Source: an uncultured Bacilli bacterium (GTDB lineage Bacteria; Bacillota_I; Bacilli_A; ML615J-28; CAG-313). From it: 62,962 nucleotides of DNA. The stretch is taken from positions 1 through 62,962 of the forward strand of contig CANQDG010000008.1 in assembly GCA_947591495.1 (NCBI GenBank), given 5' to 3'. Below, in pieces: positions 6,218-11,657 of the stretch (position 1 is its first letter; each line of letters starts with the position of its first letter). The notes beneath the pieces are model-generated. The model was given only the letters and a program-made list of their open reading frames with translations. It had not been told where the DNA came from and searched no databases. The position numbers were made by a program, and so were the translations under genes.

Positions 6218-6766
6218 CTAATGTTTTCTTTGGATTAATTGTTCTTTTTGCTTTTGATATTCATCTAAAGCGTTTTGAATAATTCGGATAGCTTTTTCTT
6301 TTGATTCAAGTTCAAAAATAGTTGTGTTTTTATGTTCTAAATTTTTATATACCATAAAGAAATGACGAATTTCATTAATAATATGTTCGGGAACATCTTC
6401 GATTTTTTTATAATGATTCATATTAGGATCATTAAAAGGCACCGCAATTATTTTATCATCATCATATTTACCATCAATCATTCTAATCACACCAATTGGG
6501 TAACATCTAACAAGGCTAAAAGGAATTAATGGTTCACTACAAAGAACTAAAACATCTAGTGGGTCTAAATCGTTTGCGTAAGTCAAAGGGATAAAACCAT
6601 AATTTGCTGGATAATGCGTAGATGTATATAAAATACGATCAAGCATAATCATCCCGGTTTTTTTATCTAATTCATATTTGTTTTTGCTACCTTTACTAAT
6701 TTCTACGACAGCAAAAAAATCATCATTTTTAATTCTTTCTTGATCCATATCATGCCATATATTCAT
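6218..6766 (-). CDS. ppa: Soluble inorganic pyrophosphatase, family I
   Basis: A 182-residue cytosolic enzyme that hydrolyses pyrophosphate. The family I core is clear: [20 protein letters not shown] followed by the metal-binding [11 protein letters not shown] signature (DxDPxD), and later [19 protein letters not shown]. Bacillus uses the unrelated family II enzyme; family I is the common form elsewhere. GGAGGTG precedes the ATG. It is separated from the restriction gene upstream by about 200 bases that hold two copies of TTTCTATATAA in minus-strand orientation and no gene. Confidence 0.95.
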
Positions 6767-6967
6767 AAATGTTCACCTCCAAAGTTTTAAAGTATTTTAT
6801 ATAGAAATTTTTTGTTATTATTTTATTATATAGAAACTTTAACAAAAAATATATCAGTTTTTTCAATTTAAAAAATCTTTTAAATTTATCTATATTTATG
6901 AAATATAACTTTATTATTTATACTTATTTTAATTAGCAAAAAACCAGTTTTTAATTATCTAAATTTT

Positions 6968-8206
6968 TTATTTTTCATTAAAAGCAATATATTCCATATT
7001 TATTAGTCTTATTAATTCCATAAAATTCATATTTTCTACATCTTCATATGAACCATTATCAAATCCAACTGATAAAACATAAGTAAAATTATCAAAAGAA
7101 TAAATTACTTCTTTACCACATCTGATATTTTCTTCAATATTACTAGCCTTTACTAATAAGCATATTTGTTGAAATCCCTTATCAACAATTCGAGTATTAC
7201 CATCCGGATGAGCTTTTTGCAAATGCTGACTTGGGGTTAAAGCAATTAAATTTTCTACATATCCACTAATTTCTTCAAACTCGTTTTCTGGAAATATGTG
7301 ATGCATATTGATTGCATGCCCGATTGCCAACTCATCTTTTATTTCAGACATTCCATTATTAAATGTATCGTTGAATGCTCTTAATAATTTTTTAGCCTTT
7401 GCAGATTGATATCTCATTAAATTAGTATTAGGTTTATCTTGCAAATAATAATAATATTCTGCTCTAGTCATTTCCTTTGGCTTATTGACATAAATATCTC
7501 TAAAATTATTTCTATTATACATTAGCATATCTTTGGTTATTTTATTTTTAGACATTCTACCTTTTTCAGTACCATATGTATTTTTCATAAAAGCCAAAGG
7601 ATTTAAAACTTTTGTAAAAATTCTATTACACTCTGTTTTCCCATTAATTGGTGTATTAAAAACTGTAAATCTTCCAAACTCATATTTCATTTTTTCATAT
7701 GTATTATTTGTTGGATTATTGAAAAAATTTTCAAAATATTCATATATACCACTATCTTTTAATACTTTTGTATTATATAATTCTATAAATTTCAATGCAT
7801 TCATTTCTCTTATAGATATAAATTCTAAAAGTTCCTTATTCCACATTTTATAGTAATTTCTATTTCCATCTTTTTTCTTCTGCAAAACACCAGCATTTGC
7901 AAGCATTTCCATAGGTTGTTGAAAAAATTTATCATATTCATTTCTAGCTTTTTGTTCATCTGGGTTAGGTTTTTTAAAAATTGATTCAACATTTTGTACA
8001 GTATAATTATTATGCCAAATGTCAAGTGAACTAAAAAATTCTTGTTGTGGATTAGAATTAGTAAACTCTAAAATACAATCTGCAATTATACATAAAACAT
8101 CAGGAGTACATTTTTGATCAATCCATCTAGCATTATGATTTTCCCTGATATCATAATTATAGTGTGTCATAAAATTTATAATCTGTTCTTCTGTTAACCA
8201 ATTCAT
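6968..8206 (-). CDS. HNH-type restriction endonuclease
   Basis: A 412-residue protein placed one base after the stop of the double methyltransferase gene, so it is almost certainly the paired endonuclease. Near residues 300-335 there is an HNH-like core: a paired histidine (MHHIFPENEFEE), then an asparagine (VENLIALTPSQH), then HPDGNTR. The N-terminal 290 residues have no motif I recognise and should hold target recognition and dimer contacts. The cleaved site cannot be read from the sequence. The gene uses more A/T-ending codons than the housekeeping genes around it, consistent with horizontal transfer. Confidence 0.8.
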   Translation of the reverse strand: MNWLTEEQIINFMTHYNYDIRENHNARWIDQKCTPDVLCIIADCILEFTNSNPQQEFFSSLDIWHNNYTVQNVESIFKKPNPDEQKARNEYDKFFQQPMEMLANAGVLQKKKDGNRNYYKMWNKELLEFISIREMNALKFIELYNTKVLKDSGIYEYFENFFNNPTNNTYEKMKYEFGRFTVFNTPINGKTECNRIFTKVLNPLAFMKNTYGTEKGRMSKNKITKDMLMYNRNNFRDIYVNKPKEMTRAEYYYYLQDKPNTNLMRYQSAKAKKLLRAFNDTFNNGMSEIKDELAIGHAINMHHIFPENEFEEISGYVENLIALTPSQHLQKAHPDGNTRIVDKGFQQICLLVKASNIEENIRCGKEVIYSFDNFTYVLSVGFDNGSYEDVENMNFMELIRLINMEYIAFNEK

Positions 8207-8207
8207 A

Positions 8208-10721
8208 TTAAGACTCCTTCAATTTTCCAAAAAAGAATACGGATGTTTTATCAATGTTCAAAGATCTAGTTTGATAATTTCTTGCTATTTTATAGAAATT
8301 TCTATATTCATTAGTTGAGTAAAATAGCATATCATTTTGAGTTAATCTAATACTATTTTTAGGTATTAATATTGCTACAGAACCATTTACTATTGTTCCG
8401 TTAGGTTTTCTACAAACTCTTGGTTTATATGACATATTAGGAGTGATATACACATTGCTATCATTCAAAAATTCATAAACATTATAATTTTTTATATCGT
8501 TTTCATCAACATATTGATCATAATTTTTTATATGTTTTATTTCAGTAGCATCGTCATTTATATTTCGTGATTTGATAACCCATATTTCTTTTTTACTTTT
8601 TGAACTATTATTATTAGTAATTTGTCTATCTCTAAATACATCAAATAAGTCAAAATCCATTTTACTAAATAAATTATCAAATTCACTATTACGATATATA
8701 ATCCAATATGGCAATTTTTTATCAATAATATATTTTTGCTTTTGATTTATTTCTTGTTTAAGTGTTATGGATAATACTTTAGTGTTATCTATTTTGTTAC
8801 AAGTATTAACATTTATACATATGGTTTCAATTAATACTCCTTCAAAACCTTTTTCACCAAAATCGATTATAGATTTTATATTTAAATGAGAAAGATAATC
8901 TCTTGTCATTGAATATTCGCTTGTATTTAACAAAAATTTAGGCATAACCATAACAACATTATCTGCTATCATTAAGGATTTTTCTAAAAAATATGAGGCT
9001 GTATTATTTGATTCATTATTGATACAATTTTCTCTATATTTATTAAGCAATTTATTACTAGAATGCATTTTCATAAATGGTGGGTTGCCAGTTATAACAT
9101 CATACCTATTTTCAAAATTATGCAAAAGATAATCATCGCATATATAATTTATGGTTATATTTTCAGGTATATCAATTATTTTTAATAATTCTTTTAACAC
9201 ACTTAATGAATAATTATTTATGTCAACAACATCAATTATCAATTCTTCGGCATAACTATATTTTGCAATTATATATGGTATAAAATTACCTACTCCAACT
9301 GATGGTTCAAGCACTCTAATTCGTTTTTTATTAATATTAGGTAATTCTTTATAAATATAATTCAATAATTTTTTATTTGTATAAAATGCCTCTTCGTTAT
9401 TCCTTTCAGCATTTGATAATTCTGCAATTTTGGATAAAGTAGTAACAGATAATATTTCCTTATTTGATTTTATAAAATAATTTAGATTCCCATTATTCAA
9501 TAAATCATTATCTTTAATTAATTTATTAATTTCTTTTAATGAATAATTTTTTCTATTTAAATTGTCTTTTATATTGATTGCAATTTGATGAAATATTTCA
9601 GTAGGTACTGCTTCACCAATAGATTGACGAATATTGATTTCTTCTTTTTTCAAAAAGTTTCTTTTTTCTTCAAAAGTCAATTTATTTAATTCTTTTTCAT
9701 CTAATTCAACCCATTTAAAAGATTTTGGAATGGTCATTATATTCATTAATTCTCTAATACTAAAGACTCTATCGTCAGATGGGTGAATAGTATTTTGACT
9801 AGCCAGTTGATCATTTCTTGTATGAATACAAGGAGCGACCTTATCCCAATATTGTCTTTTGTATTTATCACCAGTTTTATTTATATTTATTTTAATTTTA
9901 CCATCTACAATAGTATGTGGTTTTTTATTATCATCTTTTTGATCAAAAGCAGATTCTCCCTCTTTTAAATCGTGAATCCAAAAGCGCATATGTTTGGGAT
10001 ATATTCTAAAAAAATGATAAATATCATCACTACTTATTTCACCAAATTCGGTTAATGGCTTTAATTTCCCAATAACCTGCCTTAAAGTTTTTTCTTTTCT
10101 TTTTTTTGGAAACAAATCTATCGGAGAAATGTAATCTTCTAAATCTAGCCTAACACCTATCACAAGTGTTCTAGTTCTGCTTGAATTTGAACCATAATCT
10201 TTGAAATTAATTACTCGATTCATTATTACATAATCATTATCTAAATTATTATTTATCGCTAATTCAATTGATTTAATTTCATTGTCCATATCAATACAAG
10301 CTGTTTTTAAAAACGCCGATACATTTTCAAATATAAAAATTTTAGGTCTAATTTTTTTAATAATTTTAATAGATTCTATAACAAGCGAATTTCTATTAAT
10401 TTCATTATTCTTTTTTAAATTAGCTACTGACATACCTTGACAAGGTGGTGTTGCAATTACAACATCTATATTATCAATATTTTCTTTTTTACTCCAAAAC
10501 TTTATTTCATTAAATAATTTATTTTTTGTATCATCTAAAGTTATATCTCCACATATATAGCCAGATTCATATTTACATTTATGATTGACTCTTTGAATAT
10601 TTAGTCTTCTTTCTATAAGTTCATTAGTAGCAACACATTCAAAATTTTCCATTTTAAAGCCATAGCACCCAATACCTGCACTACTAAACAAACTAATATA
10701 AGTATACTTTTTACTTTTCAT
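8208..10721 (-). CDS. Fused C5-cytosine and N6-adenine DNA methyltransferase
   Basis: An 837-residue fusion of two modification enzymes. Residues 1-390 are a complete C5-cytosine methyltransferase in standard motif order: FSSAGIGCYGF (AdoMet site), PPCQG with catalytic Cys94, FENV near 131, SSRTRTLVIGVR, and GEAVP near 370. Residues 430-837 are a gamma-class N6-adenine methyltransferase: VLEPSVGVGNF near 474 and NPPF near 547. Both active sites look intact. Separate C5 and N6 activities for one endonuclease usually mean an asymmetric target with one modified base per strand; that is inference. RBS GGAGGT precedes the ATG, and the endonuclease gene follows. Confidence 0.92.
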   Translation of the reverse strand: MKSKKYTYISLFSSAGIGCYGFKMENFECVATNELIERRLNIQRVNHKCKYESGYICGDITLDDTKNKLFNEIKFWSKKENIDNIDVVIATPPCQGMSVANLKKNNEINRNSLVIESIKIIKKIRPKIFIFENVSAFLKTACIDMDNEIKSIELAINNNLDNDYVIMNRVINFKDYGSNSSRTRTLVIGVRLDLEDYISPIDLFPKKRKEKTLRQVIGKLKPLTEFGEISSDDIYHFFRIYPKHMRFWIHDLKEGESAFDQKDDNKKPHTIVDGKIKININKTGDKYKRQYWDKVAPCIHTRNDQLASQNTIHPSDDRVFSIRELMNIMTIPKSFKWVELDEKELNKLTFEEKRNFLKKEEINIRQSIGEAVPTEIFHQIAINIKDNLNRKNYSLKEINKLIKDNDLLNNGNLNYFIKSNKEILSVTTLSKIAELSNAERNNEEAFYTNKKLLNYIYKELPNINKKRIRVLEPSVGVGNFIPYIIAKYSYAEELIIDVVDINNYSLSVLKELLKIIDIPENITINYICDDYLLHNFENRYDVITGNPPFMKMHSSNKLLNKYRENCINNESNNTASYFLEKSLMIADNVVMVMPKFLLNTSEYSMTRDYLSHLNIKSIIDFGEKGFEGVLIETICINVNTCNKIDNTKVLSITLKQEINQKQKYIIDKKLPYWIIYRNSEFDNLFSKMDFDLFDVFRDRQITNNNSSKSKKEIWVIKSRNINDDATEIKHIKNYDQYVDENDIKNYNVYEFLNDSNVYITPNMSYKPRVCRKPNGTIVNGSVAILIPKNSIRLTQNDMLFYSTNEYRNFYKIARNYQTRSLNIDKTSVFFFGKLKES

Positions 10722-10890
10722 GTGCTCTACCTCCTATAATTATTATCATTAAAATAAAATATTAAATAAACAATTTGAATAATACATAAATATATTTTTT
10801 ATTTATTATTATAAATATAAATTCTCAAATCTATCTTTGTGATAATGGTTTAGATACTAATAAAAAAATTACTTAAAGTAAATCTTTTTT

Positions 10891-10927
10891 AAAAGAAAAA
10901 GCAACAAGACCTCTCTCAACTTGCTGC
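10891..10927 (-). terminator. Minus-strand terminator upstream of the methyltransferase gene
   Basis: Read on the minus strand, GCAGCAAG (10927-10920) pairs with CTTGTTGC (10908-10901) with one G-U pair and an 11-nt loop, followed by TTTTTCTTTT. It lies 170 bases before the methyltransferase start, so it ends a short RNA or attenuates the operon. Confidence 0.75.
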
Positions 10928-11007
10928 GCCTATTCTATTGCTTGTTCTAACAAACTTATTAAATTATTTATTATATGAATAAAATAGAAATTGCTTTTTA
11001 ACTAAGA
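10892..11007 (-). ncRNA. Probable small RNA or attenuated leader of the restriction operon
   Basis: A consensus promoter at 11014-11042 and the terminator at 10891-10927 define a minus-strand transcript of about 115 nt. No convincing open frame is present: ATGCGTCTTAGTTAA near the start would give four codons. It resembles no RNA family I know. If termination is incomplete, the same transcript continues into the methyltransferase and endonuclease genes. The rest of 10722-11234 holds the cwlJ upstream region and AT-rich spacer. Confidence 0.5.
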
Positions 11008-11013
11008 CGCATT

Positions 11014-11042
11014 ATTTTAACATATTAATAAATAATTTTCAA
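11014..11042 (-). promoter_or_regulatory. Sigma-A promoter
   Basis: On the minus strand TTGAAA (11042-11037), a 17-base spacer and TAAAAT (11019-11014). It drives the short leader or small RNA that ends at 10891. Confidence 0.65.
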
Positions 11043-11188
11043 CTTATTAGTCATCTTAATAGTTTTCTTTAGGTGACAAGTTTTTTTTCACTCGTTGTGT
11101 ATTTATTTACAACTATGAGTTTTTTATTATCTTTTTACTTTATTATTTATGATTTATTATATACTATCTTGTTTTTTTTTGCAATTAA

Positions 11189-11218
11189 TTATATTTTTAT
11201 CTATTTTTTCATAAACTA
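11189..11218 (+). promoter_or_regulatory. Sigma-E-like promoter of cwlJ-gerQ
   Basis: TTATATT (11189-11195), a 14-base spacer and CATAAACTA (11210-11218) resemble the sigma-E/sigma-K pattern (CATAnnnTA at -10). Bacillus cwlJ is sigma-E dependent. The start point would fall about 10 bases before the ATG, right at the ribosome site, which is unusually close. Confidence 0.45.
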
Positions 11219-11234
11219 TTCATGGGTGATAGAT

Positions 11235-11657
11235 ATGTCAATTATTTCTTATAATAATCAAGAATTAAAATTACTAGCCCGCTTAATGCGAGCAGAAGCC
11301 GAAAGTGAAGGTGATTTAGGAATGCTCATGGTGGGTAATGTTGGGGTTAATCGCGTTTTAGCTAATTGTTTAGATTTTAAAAACATTACATCTATTGAAC
11401 AAATGATTTATCAACATCCTGGTGGCTTTGAATCTACGCTTTATTCATATTTTTATGAAGCACCAAGGCAAAAAGATATTAATCTTGCCAAAAGAGTTTT
11501 AAAAGGTGAAAAATTTCATCCTGCATCTTTAGCTTTATGGTTTTATAACGCAAATGAGGAAGATTGTATGGCTAAATGGTGGGGCCAGTGGAATAGTGGG
11601 CGCTATAAATCACATTGTTTTTATAGTCCTGTTGAAAGTGAAAATTGTTATGTATAA
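11235..11657 (+). CDS. cwlJ: Spore cortex-lytic enzyme CwlJ
   Basis: A 140-residue SleB/CwlJ-family cell-wall hydrolase that degrades spore cortex during germination. The family core is intact: LLARLMRAEAESEGDLGML, VGNVGVNRVLANC, MIYQHPGGFES, and the C-terminal RYKSHCFY. I start it at ATG 11235, preceded by GGGTGAT, because that gives CwlJ's usual length (about 142 in Bacillus). An in-frame GTG at 11073 would add 54 very hydrophobic residues that CwlJ lacks. CwlJ normally has no signal peptide and is deposited in the coat with GerQ, encoded next. Confidence 0.95.
   Translation: MSIISYNNQELKLLARLMRAEAESEGDLGMLMVGNVGVNRVLANCLDFKNITSIEQMIYQHPGGFESTLYSYFYEAPRQKDINLAKRVLKGEKFHPASLALWFYNANEEDCMAKWWGQWNSGRYKSHCFYSPVESENCYV

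What the first reader, a model, noticed from the sequence alone, without database searches (positions are those of the whole stretch)
6968..10721. Restriction system with a C5-cytosine/N6-adenine methyltransferase fused in one chain
Both methyltransferase halves appear complete, and the sole endonuclease candidate is an HNH protein. Two chemistries in one protein suggests an asymmetric target with 5-methylcytosine on one strand and N6-methyladenine on the other. Separate genes of these types are known for some type IIS systems; a single fused protein is rarer.
Basis: partly seen in the sequence, partly recalled or inferred. Interest (0 to 1): 0.68.

Follow-up and report, generated by a model that had tools for sequence, protein, structure and literature searches.

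The report
HpyAV-like restriction system, fused methylase
This is an ordinary bacterial DNA-defence cassette: a cutting enzyme plus one two-headed protein that marks both strands of the host's own sites, of a kind already characterised in Helicobacter pylori (HpyAV), here found in an uncultured Bacilli genome.

Summary
Window 8208-10721(-) encodes one intact 837-aa chain with a complete C5-cytosine methyltransferase (residues ~1-390) followed by a complete gamma-class N6-adenine methyltransferase (~441-837). Window 6968-8206(-), one base downstream, encodes a 412-aa HNH endonuclease. The system is not new in kind. It is a member of the HpyAV/Hin4II family of Type IIS restriction-modification systems (CCTTC 6/5). 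M.HpyAV of H. pylori is the same m5C-m6A fusion (Chan 2010), and SMRT sequencing showed m5C on CCTTC and m6A on the opposite GAAGG strand. The window MTase matches, over its full length, an 823-position library model whose length equals M.HpyAV (E 1e-277). The HNH residues H302/H303/N319/H328 align with HpyAV H294/H295/N311/H320 at a constant offset of 8. Target-recognition regions are as conserved as catalytic regions across 18 relatives, so CCTTC is the likely target, inferred and not shown. Fusion is the commonest form in the family, not a rarity. The cassette sits between ppa and a cell-wall hydrolase gene that are adjacent in all four sampled congeners, so it was probably acquired horizontally.

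The parts
8208..10721 (-). fused DNA methyltransferase, 837 aa: N-terminal C5-cytosine MTase (res. ~1-390, incl. TRD ~191-318), linker (~390-440), gamma-class N6-adenine MTase (~441-665) with C-terminal TRD (~666-837)
6968..8206 (-). Type IIS-type HNH (beta-beta-alpha-Me) restriction endonuclease, 412 aa; catalytic H302, H303, N319, H328; N-terminal part predicted as winged-helix-like domains
   Evidence: PMC2816704
8204..8225 (-). M/R junction: AAATTGAAGGAGTCTTAATATG; M stop TAA one base before the R start ATG; R ribosome-binding site (GAAGGAG) lies inside the end of M, suggesting translational coupling
   Evidence: sequence; coupling inferred
6767..11072 (.). approximate extent of the inserted cassette between ppa (6218-6766) and a SleB-like cell-wall hydrolase gene (11073-11657), which are adjacent in four congeneric genomes; exact ends not determined

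Best explanation
A horizontally acquired Type II (IIS) restriction-modification system of the HpyAV/Hin4II family. The single 837-aa protein methylates both strands of one asymmetric site, most likely CCTTC/GAAGG: the N-terminal half adds m5C to a cytosine of CCTTC and the C-terminal half adds m6A to an adenine of GAAGG. The downstream HNH endonuclease recognises the same unmethylated site and cuts a few bases outside it (6/5 in HpyAV), destroying incoming unmethylated DNA. Two chemistries are needed because CCTTC contains no adenine and GAAGG no cytosine. Shown here: gene structure, motifs, family membership, catalytic residues, insertion. Inferred from HpyAV: target, cut position, which strand gets which mark.
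For: Full-length match of the MTase (res. 4-836) to PADLOC PDLC03277 positions 6-822 of 823, E 1.3e-277. Its halves match PDLC03370 (387 positions, E 2e-167) and PDLC03382 (445, E 1e-113), lengths identical to M.HpyAV (823), M1.Hin4II (387) and M2.Hin4II (445) in Chan 2010 Table 2. REase to PDLC03488, E 1e-133. Catalytic HNH residues at a constant +8 offset to the mutagenised HpyAV residues, all four invariant in the 23-sequence alignment. M upstream of R, same direction, as in HpyAV. m5C TRD as conserved as the catalytic part (69.4% vs 69.1% mean identity to the window) and the m6A C-terminal TRD likewise (55.1% vs 51.7%) across 18 relatives, arguing for a shared target. M.HpyAV's m5C/m6A on CCTTC/GAAGG demonstrated by SMRT (PMC3936762). 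Flanking genes adjacent in 4 of 4 congeners, in which no PDLC03488-type REase is found, and cassette G+C 24.4% against 28-29% around it.
Against: The HpyAV and Hin4II protein sequences themselves were not in hand; the link runs through library models of matching length, the published residue numbers and gene order. The host genome sample shows no avoidance of CCTTC (obs/exp 1.01 over 463 kb; not lower than congeners), which neither supports nor excludes the target. No methylome or cleavage data for this organism.
Confidence: 0.9

Rival explanations
1. Same architecture and family, but a shifted target (for example one base different from CCTTC, or longer), so it is an HpyAV-like system with a new specificity.
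For: Identity to relatives outside its own clade is only ~46-60%; the 2010 authors noted that distant homologues may recognise a site with a 1-bp difference (PMC2816704); no CCTTC avoidance.
Against: TRD regions are as conserved as catalytic regions, and the known isoschizomers HpyAV and Hin4II are themselves only 57%/56% (M) and 48% (R) identical.
Confidence: 0.1
2. Alw26I/Eco31I/Esp3I-type system (HNH endonuclease with m5C and m6A methylation, targets around GTCTC).
For: From own knowledge these also combine an HNH endonuclease with m5C and m6A modification.
Against: The REase matches no relevant Pfam or NCBIfam model, while it matches a different PADLOC REase model nearly full-length with HpyAV's exact HNH spacing.
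Confidence: 0.02
3. Decayed or solitary system: the methyltransferase is active but the endonuclease is not, or one methyltransferase half is inactive.
For: Inactive or truncated members exist (for example a frameshifted HNH gene in H. pylori G27, PMC2816704; a frame break in the m5C half of L008).
Against: Both window ORFs are full-length with all catalytic motifs intact, and both predicted structures are confident (mean pLDDT 87.9 and 86.8).
Confidence: 0.06

Closest known systems
HpyAV R-M system, H. pylori 26695 (HP0053 R, HP0054 M; CCTTC 6/5; PMC2816704)
   Same: single m5C-m6A fused MTase of ~820-840 aa; HNH REase of ~410-420 aa with identical H-H-N-H spacing; M upstream of R in the same direction
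   Different: different host phylum; diverged sequence; insertion site; target here not measured
Hin4II R-M system, Haemophilus influenzae RFL4 (CCTTC)
   Same: homologous m5C MTase, m6A MTase and HNH REase in the same order
   Different: m5C and m6A MTases are two separate genes (M1, M2) in Hin4II
AlwI (Type IIS; two MTases in one chain; PMC4081073) and MhoVII of Mycoplasma hominis (GATG/CATC; PMC12898733)
   Same: two strand-specific MTases joined in one chain for an asymmetric site
   Different: MhoVII fuses two m6A enzymes and is not an m5C/m6A pair; the AlwI chain is described as two MTases for GGATC and GATCC; neither was compared by sequence here

Membership tests
HpyAV/Hin4II-type Type IIS R-M system | m5C MTase and gamma m6A MTase homologous to M.HpyAV / M1+M2.Hin4II | tested here: met
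   PDLC03277 full length E 1.3e-277; PDLC03370 and PDLC03382 on the halves; lengths equal those in Chan 2010 Table 2. Identity of the models with these enzymes is inferred from length.
HpyAV/Hin4II-type Type IIS R-M system | HNH REase homologous to HpyAV with catalytic H294, H295, N311, H320 | tested here: met
   PDLC03488 E 1e-133; window H302/H303/N319/H328, constant +8 offset, invariant in the 23-sequence alignment
HpyAV/Hin4II-type Type IIS R-M system | M gene immediately upstream of R, same orientation | tested here: met
   the same in most relatives
HpyAV/Hin4II-type Type IIS R-M system | Target CCTTC, m5C on CCTTC and m6A on GAAGG | tested here: inconclusive
   TRD conservation supports it; genome motif counts uninformative; no methylome
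HpyAV/Hin4II-type Type IIS R-M system | Cleavage at N6/N5 downstream, preferring Mn/Co/Ni | not testable with these tools
   needs purified enzyme
Alw26I/Eco31I/Esp3I family | REase recognised by a curated model of that family | tested here: inconclusive
   no Pfam or NCBIfam match for the REase at E<=0.1 apart from an irrelevant weak HTH hit; whether those libraries hold such a model was not verified

The most novel reading that the evidence does not exclude
The system is an HpyAV-family member with a new asymmetric specificity, in which the covalent fusion couples m5C and m6A deposition on the two strands of one site during a single binding event.
Probability: 0.08. Interest if true: 0.3.

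Novelty: new member of a known kind. Interest (0 to 1): 0.14.

Why it matters
It adds a complete, probably recently acquired HpyAV-type system from an uncultured Bacilli lineage and shows that the m5C-m6A fusion is widespread (Bacillota, Pseudomonadota, Spirochaetota, Melainabacteria, Patescibacteria), not a curiosity of a few pathogens. It predicts a testable paired CCTTC/GAAGG methylome. The family also contains odder variants (see noticed in passing) that are more interesting than the window's own copy.

Tried and rejected
CCTTC avoidance: 5-mer obs/exp with a maximal-order Markov model on 463 kb of the host and 200 kb of each of four congeners lacking the REase gave no depletion (ratio 1.01, rank 281 of 512); uninformative. 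Direct comparison with the HpyAV or Hin4II sequences was not possible: no such record was in the collections searched and none of the 14 control genomes matched the REase model. PDB sequence search of the REase gave nothing useful, and Foldseek of its model gave no significant hit, so no solved homologue was found. Alw26I/Eco31I/Esp3I considered and set aside. Target-site duplications at the insertion ends: no convincing repeat, AT-rich noise only. Promoter and terminator scans not clearly better than shuffles. MhoVII (PMC12898733) read and set aside as an m6A/m6A fusion.

Full report
What is there. Two intact, adjacent minus-strand genes lie exactly at the reported coordinates. The upstream one, 8208-10721, is an 837-aa protein; the downstream one, 6968-8206, is a 412-aa protein. 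M ends TAA one base before the ATG of R, and R's ribosome-binding site lies within the end of M, so the two are probably co-transcribed and translationally coupled (inference).

The methyltransferase. Residues 1-390 carry every C5-cytosine MTase motif in order (FSSAGIG 12, PPCQ 92, ENV 132, S-x-R-x-R 180, motif IX ~323, GEAV 369). Residues ~441-837 carry the gamma-class N6-adenine order X (AFYT 445), I (EPSVGVG 472), IV (NPPF 546), then a C-terminal TRD. Pfam agrees for both halves. AlphaFold (mean pLDDT 86.8, pTM 0.84) and Foldseek give adenine MTases CamA, M.TaqI and M.BseCI and cytosine MTases such as M.HaeIII among the best structures.

The endonuclease. No Pfam family matches, but the 23-sequence alignment has invariant H302, H303, N319 and H328 in the context MHHIFPEN...YVENLIALTPSQH, and the model (pLDDT 87.9) places them on strand 300-303, strand 320-323 and helix 325-332, a beta-beta-alpha-Me layout. 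Two helix-strand-strand units further upstream (85-121 and 189-222) look like winged helices; that these read the target is inference. Foldseek found no significant solved homologue.

What it is. Chan et al. 2010 (PMC2816704) characterised HpyAV of H. pylori 26695: CCTTC(6/5), an HNH REase (HP0053, 419 aa) with important H294, H295, N311 and H320, downstream of a fused C5-cytosine/N6-adenine MTase (HP0054, 823 aa), related to the split M1 (387 aa) and M2 (445 aa) of Hin4II. The window REase has the same four residues at a constant +8 offset. The window MTase matches full-length a PADLOC model of 823 positions (E 1.3e-277), and its halves match models of 387 and 445 positions; these lengths are those of M.HpyAV, M1.Hin4II and M2.Hin4II, so I take the models to be built on these enzymes (inference). 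As calibration, a Brachyspira relative scores 691 bits on PDLC03277 and the window 921; in the 2010 table another Brachyspira MTase is 43% identical to M.HpyAV, so the window protein is likely closer than that. SMRT sequencing of H. pylori assigned m5C on CCTTC and m6A on GAAGG to M.HpyAV (PMC3936762).

Is the target the same? Across 18 fused relatives the m5C TRD is as conserved as the m5C catalytic part (69.4% vs 69.1% mean identity to the window), and the m6A C-terminal region as conserved as its catalytic part (55.1% vs 51.7%); only the linker is loose (41%). Freely diversifying specificity would show the opposite. CCTTC is therefore the best guess, and it also explains why both chemistries are needed: one strand has no A, the other no C. 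Counts of CCTTC in 463 kb of the host show no avoidance, so the genome itself neither confirms nor denies it.

How it got here. In all four sampled congeners (and in G008/L113 of the same family) the sleB-like gene, ppa, folD, pth and mfd follow each other with sleB directly next to ppa. In the window the cassette separates ppa from sleB, its G+C is 24.4% against 28-29% around it, and no REase of this type is found in those congeners. The nearest relatives (91%, 85%) are in uncultured Bacilli MAGs; no window neighbour gene was detected around L002 and L004. Horizontal acquisition is the simplest reading; the ends could not be mapped to a duplication.

How common is the fusion? Among collected loci 21 carry the fused ORF and 4 have separate m5C and m6A genes (L022, L023, L035, L037), while five Bacteroidota loci have the m5C gene without an adjacent m6A gene. 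On the m5C tree the 'fused' label needs five changes, two of them forced by well-supported branches, so fusion or fission probably happened more than once. The fused form is the rule here, as the 2010 survey also found.

Verdict. Interest is low.

Noticed in passing
L025:6001-9353, L026:5391-8856, L027:1299-4687 (also L028:675-2563 without a detected REase): Bacteroidota variant: an m5C MTase ~60-64% identical to the window's N-terminal half is followed by a ~253-aa NOV_C-domain protein (PF13020, E ~1e-13), not by an adenine MTase, and then by an HpyAV-like HNH REase. No m6A MTase is adjacent, so how the second strand of an asymmetric site is protected is unexplained.
   Followed up: partly
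L016:633-4371, L017:889-4627, L018:5989-9721: Three Clostridium MAG loci carry a fused HpyAV-like MTase (47% identical) followed by a ~440-aa HNH_2 endonuclease (PF13391) not detectably related to the HpyAV-like REase: possible endonuclease swap, testable for a shared target.
   Followed up: partly
L021:5980-8460 (Patescibacteria UBA6164): A fused HpyAV-like MTase reads through only if TGA is glycine (code 25, 37 TGA codons in ~820), so the family has reached a lineage with a recoded stop codon.
   Followed up: yes
NZ_CP114603 (Acinetobacter towneri, L035), NZ_CP101116 (Acinetobacter sp. Z1, L037), NZ_MN657046 (Psychrobacter, L036): HpyAV-family systems on plasmids, split in Acinetobacter and fused in Psychrobacter (there with the REase on the opposite strand, separated by several genes), giving a plausible vehicle for spread.
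   Followed up: partly
window 8204-8225: The REase ribosome-binding site (GAAGGAG) contains the predicted target GAAGG; probably a coincidence of Shine-Dalgarno composition, but methylation of that site could in principle affect the gene.
   Followed up: no
L015:5995-8538: Acetatifactor MAG with a fused MTase (58% identical) but no detectable REase within 6 kb: candidate solitary MTase.
   Followed up: no
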